Below the pieces are notes generated by a model. The model did not search any database, was not told where the DNA came from, and saw nothing but the letters and a program-made list of their open reading frames with translations. 32,038 nucleotides of DNA from Nanobdellota archaeon. GTDB lineage: Archaea > Nanobdellota > Nanobdellia > Pacearchaeales > GW2011-AR1. Both the position numbers and the translations under genes were made by a program. The stretch covers positions 1 to 32,038 of the forward strand of contig JAUSKH010000027.1 of the NCBI GenBank assembly GCA_030647095.1. The letters run 5' to 3'. Shown in pieces: positions 2 through 20,770 of this stretch (positions are counted from its first letter, which is position 1; the number at the start of each line of letters is the position of its first letter).

Positions 2-850
2 TGGATTGGAATTATTTCTGGGCTAATTGTAATTGGTATGGATTTGATTTTTTTCTTAAAAAATGATCATTTGCTTTATTTTCTTCTTGGAATCGCATTT
101 AGTGTTATTGCGTTGCCTTTTGTAATCGGACTTACATTAGAGAATAAAAAGGAGCAACAAATTAATGAGATGTTTCTAGAATTCACAAGAAGTTTGGCAG
201 AAAGCGTTGCAAGCGGAACACCTGTGAGTAGAAGCATAATTAATATGAGGAAGAAGAATTATGGAGTTTTGACACCACATATAGAAAAATTAGCAAATCA
301 AATTGAGTTGGGAATACCTGTTGATATTGCTTTTCAAACATTTACAAGAGATGTCAATAGTAGAGTTATAAAAAGAGCAGTAGCATTGATAAGAGAGGCT
401 GAAAGGGCTGGTGGAGATATAGATTATATCCTTGATTCCACTGCAAAATCTATATCTGAAGTCGAAAAATTAAAGAAAGAAAGAAAGGCGGCGATTTATA
501 ACTTGGTGGTGCAGGGGTATATTATATTTTTTATTTTTATAGGTATTATCCTTGTTCTGCAATATAAAATTCTTCCTTTAACAACAGATATTGGAGGTTT
601 TCAAAGTTTGACTAAAGGGAGTGTTTCTTCTTTGGAGCAAAATACGCCTCAATCGCTAGAAATGCAAAGTATTGCTATAACTCAGTTTACTAGGCCTTTT
701 CTTTATCTTCTTTTAGCTCAGGGATTTTTTGCTGGATTGATTATAGGAAAACTTACAGAAGGGTCTATTAAAGCAGGGGTAAAGCATTCCTTTATACTTA
801 TGATAACTGCATTTTTAGTGTCTACGGGTTCTTCCTTATTTCTTGGTTAA
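2..850 (+). CDS. Archaellum/pilus-type T2SSF (TadC/ArlJ-like) membrane protein, 5' partial
   Basis: The reading frame is open to the left edge of the window, so the true start is probably outside it; an internal ATG lies at 38. The visible protein has hydrophobic segments near the start, a soluble helical part (about residues 35-150 from the internal Met) with the charged pattern of a T2SSF domain (RAVALIREAERAGGDID, then SISEVEKLKKERKAA), and three further membrane helices. This is the layout of the integral membrane platform of archaeal type IV pili or the archaellum. In that family it works with a secretion ATPase, which is not in this window. Pilin-like genes lie 0.9-2.1 kb downstream, which supports a surface-filament role. 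It converges on the methyltransferase gene, and the two overlap by 15 bases. Confidence 0.75.
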   Translation, partial: WIGIISGLIVIGMDLIFFLKNDHLLYFLLGIAFSVIALPFVIGLTLENKKEQQINEMFLEFTRSLAESVASGTPVSRSIINMRKKNYGVLTPHIEKLANQIELGIPVDIAFQTFTRDVNSRVIKRAVALIREAERAGGDIDYILDSTAKSISEVEKLKKERKAAIYNLVVQGYIIFFIFIGIILVLQYKILPLTTDIGGFQSLTKGSVSSLEQNTPQSLEMQSIAITQFTRPFLYLLLAQGFFAGLIIGKLTEGSIKAGVKHSFILMITAFLVSTGSSLFLG

Positions 851-1693
851 TTCTAACTTTCTTATCAAATAGAATATTTCATTATCTGAATTGAAGACTT
901 CATAAGGATAGTTAATTCTGCTAAGAATTCTTTCAAACCATATGCGACTAGGATGATTCATCGGTTTTCCAGAAAGCTTTCTTGTAGAAAAACTTACTAT
1001 TATATATTTAGAAGGAAGTTTAAGTAATAATTTCTCAGCTGTTTTATGTTTATTTTTTAAAGCTACATCTAAAACCTTTAGTAATAGAGACAAATCTATT
1101 GAGGGTAGAGAAATGTTACTCTTTCTTAAATCGTAGACAAATGTTTTACCTTTAATGTTATTTTTCTTAAAGAATGTTGAAATAATATTCAATTCGTCTT
1201 CTTTTATATCTGAAGCAAAATATTTTATTTTAGGATTAGCCAAAGCTAAAGGATTCAAACCGCAGCCAATATCTAAAATAGATTTAACAGAAAGGTCTTC
1301 TATTCTTCTTTTTAATACAGGATAGAAAGATATTCTTTCCGCTGTTGAGGAATGAGTTTGTAATAATTTTTCTATGTTTCCTTCATTTAATAGTTTAGAT
1401 CTGTCTTTTACACTCTTTTGATACTGCCCAGTATAATAACGTAAAGAAGCCCTAATCTCTTTGCTAATTATTTTAATATCTGATATTGTTAATCTATCTA
1501 ATGAAATTTTATGTTTTCTTAAATATTTTTCCAGTTCTTCATCTATTAAAGAATTTGAGATTCCACTAAACTCTTTTTTTTCTTTTATTTTCTTAGTAAT
1601 TAAGGATAGAGTAATAAGATTTCCTTTTTCCATATCTAGAAAAGCTATAAGAAGTTTAAAAAAGTGTGTTTTTGTGCCATCAAAATATTTCAT
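836..1693 (-). CDS. FmrO/Rmt-like 16S rRNA (guanine-N7) methyltransferase homologue
   Basis: A 285-residue protein with a helical N-terminal part and a Rossmann-type SAM-dependent methyltransferase domain. Visible motifs fit the ArmA/RmtB/FmrO family: HSSTAER at 114-120 just before the catalytic domain, the SAM-binding loop DIGCGLNPLA at 141-150, the acidic motif ASDI at 160-163, LLLKVLD near 203-209, and VSFSTRKLSGK at 233-243, where characterised members have VSFPT(K/R)SLGG. Characterised bacterial members methylate N7 of G1405 in the 16S rRNA decoding site and give aminoglycoside resistance. The archaeal role and target base are not known from this sequence. It is divergent from the pilin-like gene at 1784. 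A hairpin element lies only 12 bases upstream of its start codon. Confidence 0.72.
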   Translation of the reverse strand: MKYFDGTKTHFFKLLIAFLDMEKGNLITLSLITKKIKEKKEFSGISNSLIDEELEKYLRKHKISLDRLTISDIKIISKEIRASLRYYTGQYQKSVKDRSKLLNEGNIEKLLQTHSSTAERISFYPVLKRRIEDLSVKSILDIGCGLNPLALANPKIKYFASDIKEDELNIISTFFKKNNIKGKTFVYDLRKSNISLPSIDLSLLLKVLDVALKNKHKTAEKLLLKLPSKYIIVSFSTRKLSGKPMNHPSRIWFERILSRINYPYEVFNSDNEIFYLIRKLELTKK

Positions 1694-1762: not shown

Positions 1763-1783
1763 GCAGTATAACTATTGGGCAAT

Positions 1784-2521
1784 ATGAAAAAGAAAGGTGC
1801 AACTCATATTGAAATTATTTTATCATTTATTCTTTTTGCGTCTGCAGTTGGCTTTGCATTATATTTTCTAAATCCTGTTGATCATACACGTTTGGTGGAT
1901 TCTTCTTTAGGTTATGCGTCCAGAGAAATTTTAGATAATACAAGTATTAGTGTTGATAGCTTATCTGTTCTAATAAAGAATACGCCTCCTGAGCGCATTT
2001 TATCTTCAGCTCAGGGAAATATAATTGCTGTAAATATTAGTGGAATTCCGTTATCTAAAAATGTTCGGGTGGAAGAGTTAGATGGAACTGTTCTGCCTTC
2101 TGAAAGGTCTGGTGAAATAGTATATATCAAAAATTCTGCAGGTTGGCCTGCCAAAGAATTTGTATACATCAGATTCAGCGAAGATTTTGATTCGGCAGTG
2201 AGTGTTTCACCGCATCCTTTTGATAATTCAACATTCTATGAAATTTCTTCTTCTGAAAATATAAATGCTATTTCAGAGAAAAAAATGTTATATCTTAATA
2301 CAACTTATTTTGAGAATTATCAAGACTTAAAGGAAAAAAGATTCAATCTTCCTAACAGGGTAAATTTTGGTTTTTCTCTCAAATTTGATGATAATAAAAA
2401 TATTATAGCAGAAAAGAATATTCCTAATGGTTTGGAGGTTTTCTCTGATAACAAAAGGACAGATGTTCTTAGAAAAAACGGTGCTTTAGATTTTGGAGAT
2501 TTTAATATAAAAATATGGTAA
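1784..2521 (+). CDS. Pilin-like secreted/membrane protein
   Basis: I chose the ATG at 1784 rather than the in-frame TTG at 1775 because a TATA box is centred 26 bases upstream. The product (245 residues) begins with KKKGATHIEIILSF and continues in one hydrophobic helix. That is the short basic leader plus hydrophobic stretch of type IV pilin-like proteins, with G/A before the possible prepilin-peptidase site. The rest is a soluble, probably extracellular beta-rich domain with no motif I recognise. Its stop overlaps the start of the next pilin-like gene by seven bases, so the two are probably co-transcribed. It could belong to the same filament system as the T2SSF protein. Subunit identity is unknown. 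Confidence 0.65.
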   Translation: MKKKGATHIEIILSFILFASAVGFALYFLNPVDHTRLVDSSLGYASREILDNTSISVDSLSVLIKNTPPERILSSAQGNIIAVNISGIPLSKNVRVEELDGTVLPSERSGEIVYIKNSAGWPAKEFVYIRFSEDFDSAVSVSPHPFDNSTFYEISSSENINAISEKKMLYLNTTYFENYQDLKEKRFNLPNRVNFGFSLKFDDNKNIIAEKNIPNGLEVFSDNKRTDVLRKNGALDFGDFNIKIW

Positions 2522-2955
2522 ATAATAAAAAAGGATTTCTAAAAATTGTTGAAGCAACTATTGCTATTTTGATAATAATCGGCGTGTTACTTGTAGTAGT
2601 TTCTAATAGACAACAAAAGAAAAGCCAAGACTTAACAGATAATTTATTTCCTATCTTAGAAGAAATGGCTAGAAACCAGTCCTTGAGAGCCGAAGTCTTT
2701 CAGTACAATACTTCAAATGGATACACGGAAGCAAAGAATAGTCTCGTTCTAAGAAATATTGATGCTTTTGTGGGAACAAGAATTAAAAACAAGGCTTATA
2801 ACCATACTGTAAGAATTTGTAATCTTGTAAATTGCCCTCTGCAGCCTTATCCCAATGATGCTAAAGGAGATATTTTTGCTGCTGAAAGAGTTATTAGTAC
2901 AAACCTAGATGAAACTAATTTTAGTCCTAGGAAAGTTAAGATTTTCTTATGGTAA
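2515..2955 (+). CDS. Pilin-like small membrane-anchored protein
   Basis: A 146-residue protein with a short basic leader (MVNNKKGFLKIVEATIAIL) followed by a strongly hydrophobic helix to about residue 29, then a hydrophilic domain. The KKG-F junction followed by a glutamate six residues on resembles a class III (prepilin) signal. Two cysteines (RICNLVNCP) near residues 102-107 could form a disulfide. The ATG overlaps the stop of the preceding pilin-like gene, indicating translational coupling. Function beyond a likely minor pilin or surface protein cannot be assigned. Confidence 0.6.
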   Translation: MVNNKKGFLKIVEATIAILIIIGVLLVVVSNRQQKKSQDLTDNLFPILEEMARNQSLRAEVFQYNTSNGYTEAKNSLVLRNIDAFVGTRIKNKAYNHTVRICNLVNCPLQPYPNDAKGDIFAAERVISTNLDETNFSPRKVKIFLW

Positions 2956-2998: not shown

Positions 2999-3460
2999 AT
3001 GGTAGAAGAGGTTAATAAGAAAAATCTTCCTAAATGGGTCTATGTCGTTCTGGGTCTGTTGTTATTAGGAGACTTACTATATATTCTTATACATTATTTA
3101 ATAATAAAGTTCTCTTTAGGATATAAAATTATTATTTACCGGTCTGATATATTTGGTTTGATGCTGGGGATTTCTCATATTTTGATTTTATTATTAGGAG
3201 TAATTTGTCTTCTGTTTAGTTTTGGTATTCTGCAAAGAAATAAAAAGAGCGACTGGGCTGTTATCCTGAGCTTTATTATTTTAATATTCGATATAATTTA
3301 TTTTATTATGCTTTGGTTTGTTGGTTCAGCAGGTTTCACGTTTTTAGGAATAAGTGGTTACTTGTTATGGATACCTGTTACAATTGTTGTGCTTCTTATT
3401 GCGCTTATATTATTAATAATTGGGATTATTAAATCTAAAAGAAAATTGGGGGTTGAATGA
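2999..3460 (+). CDS. Four-helix integral membrane protein, unknown function
   Basis: A 153-residue protein that is mostly hydrophobic, with about four predicted membrane helices (near residues 13-36, 50-75, 85-105 and 120-146) and short charged loops; both ends are probably cytoplasmic. A TTAAAA-type box about 26 bases upstream supports the ATG at 2999 and a leaderless start. The stop overlaps the start of the next gene in an ATGA arrangement, so it is co-translated with the Cys-rich surface protein. No family motif is recognised. Confidence 0.6.
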   Translation: MVEEVNKKNLPKWVYVVLGLLLLGDLLYILIHYLIIKFSLGYKIIIYRSDIFGLMLGISHILILLLGVICLLFSFGILQRNKKSDWAVILSFIILIFDIIYFIMLWFVGSAGFTFLGISGYLLWIPVTIVVLLIALILLIIGIIKSKRKLGVE

Positions 3461-5682
3461 ATATTAAAATAAATATAATCTTCTTTATTAGTATTTTTGT
3501 AGGAGTTATTATTTTAATGAGTTCTGGTGCCTTTGCTTATTATGACGAGTGGAATGAATGCCCGACCTGCCATCAATTAGATGGGCGTTGGATTTGTGTT
3601 TTAAACCATAATGATTTATATCCTCATGGAATAGACTGTATTACCTTGTGGGCGTATCATTTGGATATTTTTGGTGGTTGGTGGGAGGAATTTTATTGTG
3701 ATGAGAGTCCTGCAGATAAGCATGATGGTTGGTTGTGGGGAGCATGGTGTAGAATAGCAGACTATCGCTGTTCTACTGTGGGGGCTACTCAATGTGTTCC
3801 TTCTGCAGGCTCTCTGGCATATCAAACGTGCTTGAATGTTGGTGGTGTTGTAGATGGTGTTTTCGACTGGAGTACTGTTAATTTTTGTGGTTCTGGGCAG
3901 ACCTGTTCTAATGGTGCTTGTGAAAACATAAACACATGCACCAACGAGTGTAGTTCTGGACAGATTAAATGCAATAGTGAAACTACTCATCAAGACTGTT
4001 TCTACAATAGTGCTACTGGTTGTTATTCCTGGAGAGATTTAGGGAGTTGTGCTAATGGATGCGACTATGGAACAGGTACTTGTCGTCCTGAATGCGGAGG
4101 CATAGGGGGGTGTCCAAATAGATGTAATGGAAATTTAATAGAAACAAATGGAGTGTGTATTGCCACTAATACATGTCAATATACTAGTCCTGCACAATCA
4201 TGTACTTATCAGTGTAATCCTTCTACTGTATCGTGTTGTGGAGCTGCTGGGCAAGCGTGTTGTAGTGGAAATAGTTGTACTTCTGGTTATACTTGTGATG
4301 GGGTAACGTGTCAAATCAGTGGGGGGGGATGTATCCCAGATTGTGCTGGAAAGTCTTGTGGTGGTGATGGTTGTGGAGGGAGTTGTGGGAGTTGTGGAGG
4401 TTCCTATTGTTCTAATACTGTCGTGATTACACCTTATTGTACAGGTACTTCGTGTTCTACAACTCAAAGTGACTGCGGGGCTGTGGGATGTTCTGGTGGT
4501 GCATGTAACCCTTGTGGTAGTGTAGGAAAAATATGCTGTTCTGGGGATACTTGTCCTATAAGTGGGATATGCCAGGGGGGAAGTTGTGTTACGCCTCCTG
4601 CATTTGATTTTAGTCTTGCCAATACAGGAAATGTTACAGTTGTTTCTGGTAGCTCTGTTTTATCAAATATAACTGCAACATTTGTATCTGGAACTGCATC
4701 TGCTATTAGTTTTTCTGCATCTGGTTTGCCTTCTGGTGCAAATCCTATATTCACGCCGACATCGTGTACTCCGAGTCCAGTATCTTGTAATACGACCCTT
4801 AATATCTCAACAATTTTGTCAACTAATTCTGGTGATTATAATCTTATAATAAGTGGTATTGGTGGGGGAACTACTCGAACAACTAAGTTTAATTTGACTA
4901 TACCTTGTGGAGTGGCAGATGGAAGTTCTTGTTGTGCTGGAGATATTTGTTTATCTAATGATTTAGCATGTAATACTGATATTAATGAGTGTGAGAGTTG
5001 TGGTGGTGTTGGTGAAATTTGCTGTAGTGTGGGTAATCAGTGCGATTCTGGACTTGAGTGTAATATTGTGGATAATTCTTGCACAGTAATCCCTCCCTCG
5101 TTGTGCAAGACGACATATAAGGATAGTGCTATAACAGTTAAACAAATTCAGTCTTGTATGAATTATAATAATGTTAGCGATTATGAATCTGGTAGAAATA
5201 GTTCTCAGGAATGTAACAATGATTGTGTTAAACCTACATCAGTAGGAGGAGGACGTACTCTTGATGCGGCTTATTCTACTTGCAGCTGGCAAACAGAGAC
5301 AAATAAGTGTTTAATTATTAAAAACATTGTTGTTGCGGGAAGTATTACTTCTTGTGTATTTAATTATGAACAGGTTATAAACTGTTCGGATGATCAAGAT
5401 TATACTATTGTGAATTATACTGTTGCTCCGCTAAACTGGATTGGCGATCCTGATAATTCTTCTAATGTTTGCAGAGACCAAACAGAATGTGGAAAAGGAA
5501 GATGTGCGAAGCAAGTTTTATGTCCTAAACCTGTAAAGTTGCCATTTTTCACATGGATTAATTTAGTTTCAGCAATCATAATTATTGCAGTTATTTATAT
5601 TGTATTTTCTAGTAATAGAGAAAAGAAAAAGAGATATAGAGAAAAGAAAAAGAGATATAGAGAAGGTAGACGTAAGAATTAA
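3457..5682 (+). CDS. Large Cys-rich membrane-anchored surface protein
   Basis: A 741-residue protein with an N-terminal signal peptide (hydrophobic to about residue 27, ending GAFA-YYDEW), a long extracellular part and a C-terminal membrane helix (about 696-718) with a strongly basic tail, so it is anchored with the tail inside. The ectodomain is rich in cysteine. Short modules of the form CGxxGxxCCxGxxC occur at least four times, and a glycine/cysteine module contains CAGKSCGGDGCGGSCGSC. A beta-rich Ig-like stretch at about 384-481 (FDFSLANTGNVTVVSG onward) separates two Cys-rich halves. Disulfide-bonded modules and many N-x-S/T sites fit an exposed, possibly adhesive protein. The partner is unknown. 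It starts inside the stop of the preceding membrane protein. Confidence 0.65.
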   Translation: MNIKINIIFFISIFVGVIILMSSGAFAYYDEWNECPTCHQLDGRWICVLNHNDLYPHGIDCITLWAYHLDIFGGWWEEFYCDESPADKHDGWLWGAWCRIADYRCSTVGATQCVPSAGSLAYQTCLNVGGVVDGVFDWSTVNFCGSGQTCSNGACENINTCTNECSSGQIKCNSETTHQDCFYNSATGCYSWRDLGSCANGCDYGTGTCRPECGGIGGCPNRCNGNLIETNGVCIATNTCQYTSPAQSCTYQCNPSTVSCCGAAGQACCSGNSCTSGYTCDGVTCQISGGGCIPDCAGKSCGGDGCGGSCGSCGGSYCSNTVVITPYCTGTSCSTTQSDCGAVGCSGGACNPCGSVGKICCSGDTCPISGICQGGSCVTPPAFDFSLANTGNVTVVSGSSVLSNITATFVSGTASAISFSASGLPSGANPIFTPTSCTPSPVSCNTTLNISTILSTNSGDYNLIISGIGGGTTRTTKFNLTIPCGVADGSSCCAGDICLSNDLACNTDINECESCGGVGEICCSVGNQCDSGLECNIVDNSCTVIPPSLCKTTYKDSAITVKQIQSCMNYNNVSDYESGRNSSQECNNDCVKPTSVGGGRTLDAAYSTCSWQTETNKCLIIKNIVVAGSITSCVFNYEQVINCSDDQDYTIVNYTVAPLNWIGDPDNSSNVCRDQTECGKGRCAKQVLCPKPVKLPFFTWINLVSAIIIIAVIYIVFSSNREKKKRYREKKKRYREGRRKN
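5617..5658 (+). repeat. Tandem 21-bp direct repeat in coding sequence
   Basis: Two perfect 21-base copies (5617-5637 and 5638-5658) encode the heptad REKKKRY twice in the cytoplasmic tail of the Cys-rich surface protein. This looks like a recent in-frame slippage duplication. Confidence 0.85.
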
Positions 5683-5706
5683 AAATGATGCGTTATTATA
5701 ACTAAT

Positions 5707-8466
5707 ATGAATAAAATAATAGGTGGTGTATTTGTTTTCCTTATTATTTTTCTAGTTTTTTTATCTGCAATAGTAAATGCATCTATTTCAATAGATAAGA
5801 ATTCTTCTAATATCCAGCAAAATTACGTTGGGGGAGATTTAATTAAAGGGAATGTGAATATAAGTTTCTCTCAGCAGACTAATGGTGTTTTTTCAAATAA
5901 TTTGGGAGAGCAAAGAATGACTCTGCTTGATTTGTTAAGCAATTCTAGTTATAAGACTATAATAAATTATCAGTGTAATCCTTCTAATTGTAAGGATGGT
6001 TATACTGCTACAGGGAATGCGGAGGATAGCTGGACATCTTCATTAAATGGAAAAGAAGTGTATGGGTTTCTTTTGAATGGTAATAATATACAAGTTAAAA
6101 ATTTTAAAATAAATATTAGTGGTGTTCCACAAAGTAGTTGTACAAATCAAATTTATATAGACCTTCTTAATGATAATTCTATTGACTTCTTTAATACGAA
6201 TTATATTAGTGATGGTTGTGGAAAGAAAGAAGGTTGCTTTATAGATTCTGGTGGAACTGAAAATGTTATAATTAGTGCTGATAAAAATTACTGTGAAAAA
6301 ATTTCAGGATTGCCCCCTGCTCCTGCTTACAGATTAAGCGCCAAAGTAAAGAAAACGGGAAGCGTGACTGCTGAAATTGATTTAAGAATTTATAATTTTA
6401 CTAACAGTTCAAATAAACAAACTTTCCCGAAGAGCTGTTCAATAGAAAATGCTGGAGATGGAGAAATTAATTGTACAATTCCTTATAGTTCTCAGAAAAT
6501 TTTTGATGCTCTTGTTTGTATTAAATTAAAATCTAATATTGATAACGCTGAGTATCAAATAAGAGGAGAGAGTAGTGGTGATTCTTGTGGAGGGCAGGGT
6601 GTACCAGAAAATGGAATTAACATTGGATCATCAGATTATGAATTGTTTATAGAGCCTCTTAAATTTGCACCTGTAAGTAAGATTGAATTCAGTGAAGCAA
6701 CATACAAGAATTTACATGACCAAAGTAGTGCTCTAACAAAAATTAATGATTATTTGGCTTCTACATACAAGTCTAATTGTACTTCTGGGTGCGTTATTCC
6801 TATTGGATTAAGCGGAATAAAACAAGATATAACTCTTGATGCGGCAAATTTGGTTTATGATAAAGGTAATCTTGTTTCAACTTCTAGTATATACCGGGTT
6901 GCAAAGAGTCCTTTTGCGATTGATTCTGGTTATTTAATGTTAAATCTGGAAAAAATGAATATTGTCGTACCAGAAGAAGATGGAATTAAAGATTTTAATT
7001 TATTCTTTGATGGAGAAAGAATATTCAATGGGTCTATAAGCATTAAGGTTGGATTTTATTTTAATGTGAATCCTTTATATGTTCCAATTGGTCAAAAATT
7101 AAGATTCTCTGCTTCTACTATACATAATATAACCTCATCTTCATGGAATTTTGGAGATGGAACTGCTCCTGTTAATTCTCTTGGTAAAGAAGTGGATCAT
7201 GCTTACTTAAATCCTGGGCTGTACACTCTTGAAGTGACTCTTTTAAATTCTAAAGGTGAAACTTCAACAAAGAAGTTTACCGTAATGACTGGGAATGCTA
7301 AGAGCTCTGCTAACTTAACATTAAGAAAATATGAAACAATGATTGCTCAGATAAGGAAGGATATAAACAATTTTTCTACACCTATTAAAAATGAACTGGA
7401 GAAAGACTTAAAAATCAATGATCTTGAAGATGCAGTAAAAAAGATAAGAACTGAGTTTGATACTCCTTCTATTAATAATTCTGATGCTAAATATGCTTCA
7501 ATAATACAATCTTTACTTGCTTTAAATTTGCCATTGGGAGTTCCTTCTAACATAAGTAGAACAGAATACGGCGAGTTGCCGCTTATTGCTGCATCATCTT
7601 CAATAGATACTAAATATATAGAGGGAATATCTGATAAAACTGTTTCTGATAAAAATAAATTAAGAAATGGTATACTGGCTTGGATGAATGAAAATTACCA
7701 AGGAGATATTAAGTTTGAGACTATATCGGCTGTATCAGAAAATGGAAAAAAAGATCTTATAAGGGTGTATAATGTTTTTGTTACGCCAAAAAAACAGAAT
7801 GATTATGATACATATCTTATAATAGGTTATCCATTTGACTCTCTTAAATTTATTCAAAGTGGTGATGAGAAAATATTAGATCAGGGAAGTGGTGCATATA
7901 TTCCGTTAAGTGGAGAAGCTTCTAAAAGTGTTTCTTTCTTTATTATTTCTAGTAATGGTGTCTTACCTAGAGCAGAGAGTTTAGGAATCTATGTTTCTCC
8001 TGATACGAGTCATGTATTTACAGAAAAGCCGATGTGTGGAGAAGGAGGATTTATTTGTGATGAAGGAGGGTTTAAGTGGGGTCTTTTCTTGATTCTTATT
8101 GGTGTATTAATTATTGTTTTATTAGTTGTTTATATTATTCTGCAAGAGTGGTATAAGAAAAAATATGAAAAACATTTATTCAAGAATCCTGATGATTTAT
8201 ACAATATTATAAACTTTATTTATAATTCTCGCCTTAATGAATCTAAAGATGAAGATATAAAGAAAAAACTCGCTGAAAGAAAATGGAGCAAGGAGCAAAT
8301 ACAATATGCATTTAGCAAAATTGATGGAAGGAGAACAGGAATGTGGGAGATACCACTATTTAAGGCTAAAGAAAATAGAAAAGTTCAGGAAGAACTTGTA
8401 AAAAAGAACGCTGGAAAACCGATAGATCGAAGATTTCTTTCACAAGGAAGCAAGGAGGGCTTTTAA
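5707..8466 (+). CDS. PKD-domain surface protein with membrane anchor and cytoplasmic helical tail
   Basis: A 919-residue protein with an N-terminal signal peptide (hydrophobic to about residue 27), a long N-glycosylation-rich ectodomain with paired cysteines, and a PKD-type domain at about 451-523 (SSWNFGDGTAPV and DHAYLNPGLYTLEV). A mixed helical/beta region follows, then a single membrane helix at about 790-815. After the helix come about 100 cytoplasmic residues, including NPDDLYNIINFIYNSRL and AERKWSKEQIQYAFSKIDG, which look like a small three-helix (UBA-like) domain. This architecture suggests an extracellular binding module linked across the membrane to an internal interaction domain. 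Ligand and partner are unknown. An AATTAAAA-like box about 26 bases upstream supports the ATG used. Confidence 0.65.
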   Translation: MNKIIGGVFVFLIIFLVFLSAIVNASISIDKNSSNIQQNYVGGDLIKGNVNISFSQQTNGVFSNNLGEQRMTLLDLLSNSSYKTIINYQCNPSNCKDGYTATGNAEDSWTSSLNGKEVYGFLLNGNNIQVKNFKINISGVPQSSCTNQIYIDLLNDNSIDFFNTNYISDGCGKKEGCFIDSGGTENVIISADKNYCEKISGLPPAPAYRLSAKVKKTGSVTAEIDLRIYNFTNSSNKQTFPKSCSIENAGDGEINCTIPYSSQKIFDALVCIKLKSNIDNAEYQIRGESSGDSCGGQGVPENGINIGSSDYELFIEPLKFAPVSKIEFSEATYKNLHDQSSALTKINDYLASTYKSNCTSGCVIPIGLSGIKQDITLDAANLVYDKGNLVSTSSIYRVAKSPFAIDSGYLMLNLEKMNIVVPEEDGIKDFNLFFDGERIFNGSISIKVGFYFNVNPLYVPIGQKLRFSASTIHNITSSSWNFGDGTAPVNSLGKEVDHAYLNPGLYTLEVTLLNSKGETSTKKFTVMTGNAKSSANLTLRKYETMIAQIRKDINNFSTPIKNELEKDLKINDLEDAVKKIRTEFDTPSINNSDAKYASIIQSLLALNLPLGVPSNISRTEYGELPLIAASSSIDTKYIEGISDKTVSDKNKLRNGILAWMNENYQGDIKFETISAVSENGKKDLIRVYNVFVTPKKQNDYDTYLIIGYPFDSLKFIQSGDEKILDQGSGAYIPLSGEASKSVSFFIISSNGVLPRAESLGIYVSPDTSHVFTEKPMCGEGGFICDEGGFKWGLFLILIGVLIIVLLVVYIILQEWYKKKYEKHLFKNPDDLYNIINFIYNSRLNESKDEDIKKKLAERKWSKEQIQYAFSKIDGRRTGMWEIPLFKAKENRKVQEELVKKNAGKPIDRRFLSQGSKEGF

Positions 8467-17553: not shown

Positions 17554-19626
17554 TTAGACTATCGGTGCGGAAGCAATCAACTCCACGTTGGAAGTATCAC
17601 CATCTTTAGTTACTCTTAAAACGTTTTCTACGAAACCTTCTATTTTAGATTCGTGGCTAACAATAATTAATTGGGAGGCATTCAACTGTTCTAAAATGTC
17701 CCGTATCTTTTGTATTTGTGATTCTGAAAAACCTTCTGTTGGCTCGTCTAATATGACTATTCCGCGGGTTTGTATTTTACTTAAAACAGAATTTATTGTT
17801 TGATTAAGGGCTAGACGGTAGGCAAGAGCGACTGCTGTTCTTTCGCCACCAGATAAAAATTCGTATTCCATTTCTGCTCCTTCTCTTATTATTATTGGTG
17901 TGAAGTTTTCATCTATATTGGAGTCGAGTGTGTTTTCAGGAATCAACATTAAAAACCATTCTCTGAAAACCCTTGAAAATTCGTTTCTTAATCTTAAAAG
18001 CACGTTTCTCTCTATAAATTCTATGAGGTTTGCAAATTGTGAAGAAAGCCAGTCTATCGTATCTGTTATTTTGTATAGCCTTTGCTTTAATACCTCCCTT
18101 TTTAGGATAGATTCTTTTAATAGTTCTATTTCTTTTTGAGTCATCTGTCCTTCTTTTTTTAATTCTGCTAAAGAGATTTCTGTGTTTTTTTCATCCATAA
18201 ATGCTTGCTTGAGTTCTAGCTGTTTTTTCTTGAACTGGTTATCAAAAGCAGAGTAACGCAAGATACTCTCCTTTAATCCATTTAAATGGTGAGATAATAA
18301 ACTTAAGTCGTTTTCAAGGCTTTGTTTTTGTTTTTCAAGTTCTGTTATCTTTTGTTTTGTTTTAGTAAGATACTCTTCCTTCGATTTTATTATTTCCATT
18401 TGTGTTTTCTTATTTTCCAGTTCTTTTAGTTCTTTTTTTATTTTTTCTAATTGGATTATAAATTCTTTATTTTCTTCTTTTATGTTTTCTAATTGCTTTA
18501 CAACTTCTGATATTTTAGATTCGGCTTCATTTAGGATATTATGTTTATGTACTTCAGATACTGTTTGTAAACATGTGGGACAGATTTTTATGTTAAATAC
18601 ACTCTCCTTTTTATGTGTCGAATCTTCTTTTTCTTGCTCAAGAATTCTTATTTTACCTAAAGTTTCTAAATAGTTTGTGCTAGTCTTTTCTAGGATATCT
18701 CTTTTTAGGGATATTTCCTTGATAATGGAAGTGTATAACACTTCGTTGTAAATTTCGCCTTTTTCTAGAAAATTTCTGTTAAGCTCGTTTATGTCCCTGG
18801 TTATGAGCGCGAAAGTCTCTCTTTTTGTTCCTAGTAGGATTTTTGTTTTTTCTGCTTCCCCTTCAAAAGTACGTTTTTCCTCTATTCTTTTTTCTATGAT
18901 ACTTAATTCTGACTCACATTGTTTCCTGTTCTTTATTTTTTCATTTAGTTCTACTTCCTTATCGTGTGCTTTTAGATTAATTAGGTTTAATTGAGAACTT
19001 CTATTACTCAAATTATCTTTTTCTTGCTCTAATAGTTTTATTTCTGCCTGTAATATTTTTGAATCATTTTTTAGTGCGGTAATTAATTGCGATAGATTTT
19101 CTTGAATGGTTTTATATTTATCAACTCCGAATATGTGGCGTAGGATATTCATTCGCGTTTCTATATCTTCAAGAATTATCTGTTTCATTTGTTCTTGAGG
19201 AGTGTAAACTGTATACCTATATAGTGTGTTATTTTTCTTAACGAATTCTAAAGGATAGCCTATAAGAGAGACAACCTTTGACTTTATTTCTGTAACTGAT
19301 GACTCTATTCTTTCCCCTTCAATAGATATTGCTGCAAATTCGTTGCTGACTCCTTTTGCAGATCTTTTTAACTTTCTTTCTATTATAATTTCTTTTCCAT
19401 TTATTTCTAAATCTAAAACTACTTCTCCTACTTTTGCATTGCTTCTCAGCAAAGAAGAACCTTTTTGTCCGGGTTGTAATCCGAATAAAGCGTATTCTAA
19501 AGCTAGAAGAATGGTGGTTTTTCCTGATCCTACATCTCCTGAAAGCAAAATAGACCCTTCTGGAAATTCGATTTCTTGACTTTTGTACGAACGAATGTTC
19601 TTAAGTTTTATACTTTTAAATTTCAT
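17554..19626 (-). CDS. rad50: Rad50 ABC-type ATPase of the Mre11-Rad50 complex
   Basis: I start it at the ATG at 19626 (690 residues), not at 19686, because MKFKSIKLKNIRSYKSQ is the normal Rad50 beginning and the longer form would lie deep inside mre11. Walker A is GDVGSGKT at 30-37. Long coiled-coil arms flank a zinc hook, CPTC, at about 349-352. The signature LSGGERTAVA and Walker B VILDEPTEG lie near the C-terminus. Rad50 tethers and unwinds DNA ends with Mre11 at double-strand breaks. It is shorter than many archaeal homologues because the coiled coil is short. The start overlaps the mre11 stop by 11 bases. Confidence 0.95.
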   Translation of the reverse strand: MKFKSIKLKNIRSYKSQEIEFPEGSILLSGDVGSGKTTILLALEYALFGLQPGQKGSSLLRSNAKVGEVVLDLEINGKEIIIERKLKRSAKGVSNEFAAISIEGERIESSVTEIKSKVVSLIGYPLEFVKKNNTLYRYTVYTPQEQMKQIILEDIETRMNILRHIFGVDKYKTIQENLSQLITALKNDSKILQAEIKLLEQEKDNLSNRSSQLNLINLKAHDKEVELNEKIKNRKQCESELSIIEKRIEEKRTFEGEAEKTKILLGTKRETFALITRDINELNRNFLEKGEIYNEVLYTSIIKEISLKRDILEKTSTNYLETLGKIRILEQEKEDSTHKKESVFNIKICPTCLQTVSEVHKHNILNEAESKISEVVKQLENIKEENKEFIIQLEKIKKELKELENKKTQMEIIKSKEEYLTKTKQKITELEKQKQSLENDLSLLSHHLNGLKESILRYSAFDNQFKKKQLELKQAFMDEKNTEISLAELKKEGQMTQKEIELLKESILKREVLKQRLYKITDTIDWLSSQFANLIEFIERNVLLRLRNEFSRVFREWFLMLIPENTLDSNIDENFTPIIIREGAEMEYEFLSGGERTAVALAYRLALNQTINSVLSKIQTRGIVILDEPTEGFSESQIQKIRDILEQLNASQLIIVSHESKIEGFVENVLRVTKDGDTSNVELIASAPIV

Positions 19627-20770
19627 TTTGCAATATTTTCCTAGATTCTGAAAGTAGCCTATCTCCAAATGCAGAAGACGTTTCATCTTCTAATTTTTCT
19701 ATTGTGAGAGTCCTCATTAAATCTGGAACAAAGGAGTTAAACCTGCTTAGATGTGTTTCTTCAAATCTTTTAACGATTTGTGCTTCTAATTGCTCTGAAT
19801 CGAAAATATCTAATTTTATATCTGGTTCTGGCAAATGAAGCTTAGAAGTGCTCTTTAAGAAGGTGTATGCTCCTTTTTCTTTTGTATAAGATTCTATTTG
19901 CTGAAAGTCTATATCAGATGTTTTTCCTTTTTCTAAAATTCCGCAAATCCTTACTATTATTATTTTATCTTTTAATTCTTTTTTTGAGAGTATATCCAAA
20001 ATCTTTTCAGTTGCTGTTAAAGAATTTGTAATTTCTAAGGTTATAGGGATTACTTCTTTTAGTTTAATCTCTTCCCTTGTAATTCTTCCATTGTCAAAAA
20101 TATAAAAAGATCCTCCTTGTAATTCTTCCAGTTCTGAAAGATTGTTAGGGAATGTTGGACCTGAATAAACCTTTGTATCTCTATGATAATTAATATGGAG
20201 ATGTGAAAGTGCAAGATAGTCTACTTTTGGAAGATATTTTTCGTTAACAGATTTTATAGGAGAGTTATTAACTGCATCTTTTATTGTAGTATGAAGCATT
20301 AGTATATTAAATAACCCTGGAGCATATTGTAATTTTATGCGTTCTATCTCGTCAACTTCTAAACCGGACTTCTTGCCAGGATAACCAAATAAAGCTATAT
20401 TCTTATAGATTGTAGGTTCTAAAATTATGGAGTCATTGCGAATTTCATAATTGGCAACGTTCTTGCAGAAACCTGCTTTTTCTAATACATCTAAAAAAGT
20501 CTTTCCTGAAACAGAATAGTCGTGACTTCCGGCAATTAAGAAAACAGGTATATTTGCTTCTTTAACCTTTCTTAACTCTTCAAAAGCTTTCTTTAGCGTG
20601 TCGATGGGTGGATAGGCTGCATCAAATAAGTCTCCCGAAATTAGAATAAAATCTACTCTTTCTTTGATAGAATACTGAAGTGCAAATTGAAAACTCTTAA
20701 AATTTAGTTCTTTTAGCTCTGGTTGTCTCCAGCTTCCTAAATGACAGTCTCCCATATGTGCGAACTTCAT
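19616..20770 (-). CDS. mre11: Mre11 DNA double-strand-break repair nuclease
   Basis: A 384-residue calcineurin-like phosphoesterase that acts as exo- and endonuclease on DNA ends with Rad50. Metal-binding motifs: D8 and H10 (MGDCHLG), D47 (ISGDLFD), the GxHD motif at 81-84, HTT near 186 and HLHINY. Odd: the third motif reads GSHD instead of the common GNHD, so the metal-bridging asparagine position is serine. A C-terminal capping region continues to the Rad50-binding end. A TTTATAAA box at 20794-20801 (minus strand) is centred about 27 bases upstream; the gene leads the mre11-rad50 operon. Confidence 0.95.
   Translation of the reverse strand: MKFAHMGDCHLGSWRQPELKELNFKSFQFALQYSIKERVDFILISGDLFDAAYPPIDTLKKAFEELRKVKEANIPVFLIAGSHDYSVSGKTFLDVLEKAGFCKNVANYEIRNDSIILEPTIYKNIALFGYPGKKSGLEVDEIERIKLQYAPGLFNILMLHTTIKDAVNNSPIKSVNEKYLPKVDYLALSHLHINYHRDTKVYSGPTFPNNLSELEELQGGSFYIFDNGRITREEIKLKEVIPITLEITNSLTATEKILDILSKKELKDKIIIVRICGILEKGKTSDIDFQQIESYTKEKGAYTFLKSTSKLHLPEPDIKLDIFDSEQLEAQIVKRFEETHLSRFNSFVPDLMRTLTIEKLEDETSSAFGDRLLSESRKILQNEI

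What the first reader, a model, noticed from the sequence alone, without database searches (positions are those of the whole stretch)
836..1693. Archaeal homologue of aminoglycoside-resistance 16S rRNA methyltransferases
The HSSTAER, DIGCGLNPLA and VSFSTRKLSGK motifs match the ArmA/RmtB/FmrO family, which methylates G1405 in bacteria. A chromosomal archaeal member without a drug-resistance context points to a housekeeping or antitoxin-like rRNA modification role.
Basis: partly seen in the sequence, partly recalled or inferred. Interest (0 to 1): 0.6.

Follow-up and report, generated by a model that had tools for sequence, protein, structure and literature searches.

The report
Archaeal housekeeping ribosomal RNA methyltransferase
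A small archaeon carries a full-length relative of the bacterial enzymes that give aminoglycoside resistance by methylating the ribosome's decoding centre; about half of the genomes in its phylum have one copy, often in the same operon as ribosome-maturation or ribosome-rescue genes, which points to an ordinary ribosome-modification role rather than drug resistance.

Summary
The 285-codon frame (probably 265 aa, from an internal ATG at 1633) scores above the Pfam FmrO cut-off. A profile of its archaeal relatives finds RmtB, ArmA, RmtC, Sgm and RmtF (E 1e-27 to 1e-29) far ahead of any other methyltransferase. An AlphaFold model (pLDDT 88) matches RmtB over its whole length, N-terminal 30S-binding region included. 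SAM-site residues are conserved.

The family is widespread: 183 of 371 genomes of the phylum have it, nearly always as one copy, in a clade apart from the resistance enzymes. In the window's genus it sits antisense inside a pilus operon, which says little. In other families it directly follows Pelota (21 loci within 30 nt, same strand) or aDim2/Pno1 in a RIO1-aIF1A-aIF2beta operon (13 loci). That supports a housekeeping 30S decoding-centre methylation, most likely m7G1405. "Antitoxin-like" has no support.

Caveats: the target was not measured; three genomes with the gene have A1405; half the phylum lacks it; NCBI's function-level cut-off is not met (105 versus 250 bits). A Nanoarchaeota homologue was noted in 2013, so only breadth and operon links look new.

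The parts
836..1693 (-). Longest ORF of the FmrO/Arm-type 16S rRNA methyltransferase homologue (285 aa)
836..1633 (-). Probable real coding sequence (265 aa, from the internal ATG = Met21)
   Evidence: Relatives align from about residue 21 on; ATG read; inference
1355..1633 (-). N-terminal helical region (residues 21-113), homologous to the 30S-binding domain of RmtB/Sgm
   Evidence: Profile alignment covers RmtB residues 15-251; helices 6-37, 47-60, 70-88 in the model
1334..1354 (-). HSSTAER motif (residues 114-120)
   Evidence: S116, E119, R120 98% conserved in 122 archaeal sequences and present in all bacterial enzymes compared
1244..1273 (-). DIGCGLNPLA SAM-binding motif I (residues 141-150)
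   Evidence: D141 and G145 in 122/122 archaeal sequences, N147 in 120
1076..1078 (-). K206, lysine of the LLLKVLD motif
   Evidence: 121/122 archaeal sequences and all bacterial enzymes compared
965..997 (-). VSFSTRKLSGK motif (residues 233-243)
   Evidence: S234 and F235 96-98% conserved
38..850 (+). Neighbour: type II/IV secretion F-type (TadC/ArlJ-like) pilus gene, overlapping the methyltransferase tail to tail by 15 nt
   Evidence: T2SSF E 4e-16; order conserved in the genus
1775..2955 (+). Neighbours: two small pilin-like genes of the same pilus operon, opposite strand to the methyltransferase
   Evidence: Clusters 3 and 4; no Pfam hit; pilin-like by their short N-terminal hydrophobic segment (inference)

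Best explanation
A chromosomal, vertically inherited SAM-dependent small-subunit rRNA methyltransferase of the FmrO/Arm fold. Its N-terminal helical domain most likely docks on the assembled 30S platform next to the decoding centre, and its Rossmann domain transfers a methyl group to N7 of G1405 in helix 44, as the bacterial enzymes do. In these archaea the mark probably belongs to normal 30S maturation or decoding-centre tuning, not to drug self-protection. Shown: homology over the full length, fold, conserved SAM-site residues, breadth, operon links in related genomes. Inferred: enzyme activity, 30S docking, position 1405, N7 chemistry, physiological role.
For: Profile of the archaeal family hits only G1405 methyltransferases at E 1e-27 to 1e-29, next hit 1e-6. 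Model pLDDT 88.3; top 16 fold matches are all G1405 enzymes, RmtB TM 0.82 over 257 columns at 3.6 A. D141, G145 and E272 are invariant in 122 archaeal sequences, K206 in 121, and they are shared with the bacterial enzymes except RmtC A for G145. 183/371 phylum genomes have it, nearly always single copy. Immediately 3' of Pelota in 21 loci, 25 loci within three genes, nine families. 3' of aDim2 in 14 loci, several with RIO1, aIF1A, NMD3-like and aIF2beta genes. Archaeal sequences form one side of a branch with support 97; context follows the tree in few changes. G1405 is kept in 68 of 70 gene-bearing genomes read.
Against: NCBI's equivalog cut-off for G1405 enzymes is not met (104.9 vs 250 bits). 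Genomes G053, G249 and G034 carry the gene but have A1405 paired with U1496, and presence of the gene is not associated with the base at 1405. Half of the phylum lacks the gene, so the mark is dispensable. D209 and R250, well conserved in archaea, differ from all five characterised bacterial enzymes. In the window itself the neighbours are pilus genes.
Confidence: 0.62

Rival explanations
1. Same fold and same 30S docking site, but a different target base or a different RNA in archaea (another guanine of the decoding centre, or a tRNA such as the archaeal m7G tRNA whose enzyme is unknown).
For: A1405 in three gene-bearing genomes; archaea-specific D209 and R250; archaeal tRNA m7G exists with unknown position (PMC7694415); a divergent subgroup in the same family has a changed motif I.
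Against: N-terminal 30S-binding region and the active-site residues are conserved; operon partners act on the small subunit or the A site.
Confidence: 0.22
2. Self-protection against aminoglycosides made by neighbouring microbes: a resistance gene long resident in archaea.
For: Family membership; A1408 and G1405 are kept in h44 of most relatives, so methylation could block 4,6-substituted aminoglycosides.
Against: Single-copy inheritance in half of a phylum, operons with translation genes, no drug or mobile context, no viral copy found. The resistance enzymes form a separate group in the tree.
Confidence: 0.1
3. It replaces KsgA/Dim1, which is missing from most of these genomes, as the late 30S checkpoint methyltransferase.
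For: Only 79/371 genomes have a full-length KsgA-like gene; the window's genome has none. N. equitans lacks KsgA-dependent dimethylation (PMC7897474) and shares a 16S rRNA methyltransferase homologue with Nst1 (PMC3655853).
Against: No anticorrelation: 44 genomes have both, 154 neither; odds ratio 1.4, p 0.2.
Confidence: 0.04
4. Antitoxin-like or defence-linked methyltransferase.
Against: No toxin neighbour, no PADLOC family hit, conserved pilus or translation neighbours.
Confidence: 0.02

Closest known systems
RmtB / ArmA / RmtC / RmtF / Sgm (Arm family, m7G1405 16S rRNA methyltransferases; Pfam PF07091 FmrO)
   Same: Whole-length homology, N-terminal helical domain plus Rossmann fold, HxSTxER, D-x-G-x-G-x-NP, LLxK, SF.T motifs, terminal glutamate
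   Different: About 20-24% identity in structural alignment; archaeal D209 and R250; chromosomal single copy, no drug context; below NCBI's equivalog cut-off
Nanoarchaeota 16S rRNA methyltransferase homologue (N. equitans and Nst1, PMC3655853)
   Same: An archaeal homologue of the same bacterial enzyme (the paper cites the Sgm structure); listed as a Nanoarchaeota-specific gene
   Different: That report gave one sentence on two genomes, no context or residues; here half of a phylum, two translation-operon contexts and a fold model. I did not have the N. equitans sequence to compare.
KsgA/Dim1 (16S m6,2A1518/1519)
   Same: Housekeeping SAM-dependent methyltransferase of the 30S platform region
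   Different: Different family and target; not exchanged for FmrO

Membership tests
PF07091 FmrO (rRNA methyltransferase family) | Score over Pfam's curated cut-off | tested here: met
   55.1 vs 27 bits
PF07091 FmrO (rRNA methyltransferase family) | Two-part fold: N-terminal helical domain and Rossmann domain, full-length | tested here: met
   RmtB TM 0.82 over 257 columns
Arm family m7G1405 enzymes | Conserved SAM-site/active-site residues (HxSTxER, D-G-G-NP, K of LLxK, S-F, final E) | tested here: met
Arm family m7G1405 enzymes | NCBIfam NF000466 equivalog cut-off | tested here: not met
   104.9 vs 250 bits; so not filed as an Rmt equivalog
Arm family m7G1405 enzymes | G1405 present in the host's 16S rRNA | tested here: inconclusive
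   Own 16S truncated at a contig end; genus relatives G001, G003, G004, G008 have G1405; A1405 in three other gene-bearing genomes
Arm family m7G1405 enzymes | N7 methylation of G1405 | not testable with these tools
   Needs biochemistry
Aminoglycoside-resistance determinant | Found in a drug-producer, resistance or mobile context | tested here: not met
   Context is pilus or translation genes
Aminoglycoside-resistance determinant | Confers resistance | not testable with these tools
   Needs an experiment

The most novel reading that the evidence does not exclude
A constitutive m7G at the decoding centre of 16S rRNA is a normal feature of about half of this archaeal phylum, installed by an Arm-type enzyme linked to 30S maturation (aDim2/RIO1/aIF1A) and ribosome rescue (Pelota). 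The bacterial resistance enzymes would then belong to a family with an old housekeeping branch.
Probability: 0.45. Interest if true: 0.75.

Novelty: new variant of a known kind. Interest (0 to 1): 0.55.

Why it matters
Arm-type enzymes are known as drug-resistance genes, and their origin is an open question. A phylum-wide archaeal branch tied by operon structure to ribosome maturation and rescue suggests a housekeeping use of the same chemistry at the decoding centre, where a methyl group can be costly in E. coli (PMC12406665). It can be tested directly by mapping modifications in 16S rRNA of any cultured member.

Tried and rejected
Replacement of KsgA/Dim1: tested over 371 genomes, no anticorrelation. 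Link between gene presence and C1400U or A1405 in h44: none. Loss of H114 tracking A1405: no. Viral carriage: one scan, no relative. Named relatives: the genome-contig scan gave one archaeon (L052) and one bacterial family member (L053, confirmed as FmrO); L054 looks like a false hit by its sequence. Papers holding both FmrO and archaea: none.

Full report
Observation. The minus-strand frame 836..1693 is open for 285 codons and carries the quoted motifs. No open run over 151 codons appeared in 50 shuffles of the window. Pfam assigns FmrO (PF07091) at 55.1 bits against a cut-off of 27, and the general Rmt model of NCBIfam matches at E 4e-30, but with 104.9 bits against an equivalog cut-off of 250. 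Homologues lack the first 20 residues, so the likely start is the ATG at 1633 (sequence).

Family. A profile of 17 archaeal relatives, searched against all PDB sequences, found RmtB, ArmA, RmtC, Sgm and RmtF at E 2e-27 to 2e-29; the next protein came at 2e-6. The alignment to RmtB runs from residue 15 to 251, N-terminal domain included. A model from 7 sequences (pLDDT 80) and a better one from 17 (pLDDT 88.3, pTM 0.83) both had G1405 methyltransferases as the 16 best fold matches; RmtB gives TM 0.82 (target length) over 257 columns.

Residues. In 122 archaeal sequences D141, G145 and E272 are invariant, K206 is present in 121, and S116, E119, R120, N147 and S234 in about 98%. RmtB, Sgm, RmtF, RmtC, ArmA and a Defluviitaleaceae homologue share them, with few exceptions such as A for G145 in RmtC and T for S234 in Sgm and RmtF. 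D209 (P or T in bacteria) and R250 are typical of the archaeal branch. That these residues serve SAM and substrate binding rests on established knowledge of the fold, not on a test here.

Breadth. All ten genomes of the genus, the window's included, have the gene. In the phylum sample 173 of 371 have it by Pfam and 183 by the archaeal profile, 125 of 243 among the most complete genomes; nearly all have one copy. None of 14 control genomes has it. Organism names are hidden; the archaeal 16S model, archaeal genes such as aCPSF1/FttA and small genomes fit a Nanoarchaeota-type DPANN phylum (inference). A homologue shared by N. equitans and Nst1 was reported in 2013 (PMC3655853), so presence in Nanoarchaeota is not new.

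Context. In the window the gene is antisense between a T2SSF gene and pilin-like genes. The same place is kept in nine genomes of the genus and four of three other genera in the family. This shows vertical inheritance and says nothing of function. Elsewhere the gene follows Pelota on the same strand within 30 nt in 21 loci, mostly overlapping it by 6-24 nt as the frames were called, and lies within three genes of Pelota in 25 loci of nine families; Pelota identity is TIGR00111 at 235.8 bits. In 14 loci (families f22, f54 and one contig binned in f1) it lies 3' of the KH protein aDim2 (TIGR03665), 13 of them within 410 nt, with RIO1, aIF1A, NMD3-like, DUF424 and aIF2beta genes upstream in several. 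Pelota enters the A site and aDim2 binds the 3' region of 16S rRNA (established knowledge), so both contexts point to the same part of the ribosome. The number of independent origins is small (at most about four changes for Pelota, three for aDim2), so the counts are not independent events.

Tree. The archaeal sequences lie on one side of a branch with SH-aLRT 97, the bacterial enzymes on the other, together with two extra copies from family f35. The root is not inferred, so direction of transfer is open.

Target. In gene-bearing genomes G1405 is kept in 68 of 70 readable cases, and A1408 was required by the pattern used, so its constancy is not a result. G053, G249 and G034 have A1405 with U1496 and still carry the gene; bins G034 and G249 have 3-4% contamination, G053 about 1% and is 100% complete. 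Genomes without the gene show A1405 at a similar rate (Fisher p about 0.7), so h44 sequence neither proves nor excludes G1405. The own 16S gene is cut by a contig end.

KsgA. Because N. equitans lacks KsgA-type dimethylation (PMC7897474), I tested whether FmrO replaces KsgA. Full-length KsgA-like genes are in only 79 of 371 genomes, but 44 genomes have both and 154 neither (odds ratio 1.4, p 0.2): not a replacement.

Verdict. A real, well-conserved archaeal branch of the FmrO/Arm methyltransferases, most likely a housekeeping 30S decoding-centre enzyme. G1405-N7 specificity is the best guess and is unproven.

Noticed in passing
Phylum sample; window genome G000: KsgA/Dim1, almost universal elsewhere, is full-length in only 79 of 371 genomes of this phylum and was not found in the window's genome.
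   Followed up: partly
16S h44 of relatives: Decoding-region variants: C1400 to U is common, and A1405-U1496 replaces G1405-C1496 in several genomes, with or without the methyltransferase.
   Followed up: partly
L097, L098, L099, L103, L104: A divergent subgroup in the same taxonomic family has motif I as GxGVNG or GxGING instead of GCGLNP and no motif II aspartate; activity may differ.
   Followed up: no
L106 (G088), L127 (G291): Family f35 genomes carry a second copy that groups with the bacterial enzymes and lacks the HxSTxER motif.
   Followed up: no
L087 (G003 contig C37): A second copy in a genome of the window's genus sits in the aDim2 operon and groups with families f22/f54; probably a misbinned contig.
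   Followed up: no
window 17554-20770 (-): Rad50-like and metallophosphatase (Mre11-like) gene pair next to a proteasome subunit; the Rad50-like protein also scores with LmuB defence ATPase models.
   Followed up: no
window 3457-8466 (+): Two long proteins, one cysteine-rich, one with a PKD domain, downstream of the pilus genes on the same strand.
   Followed up: no
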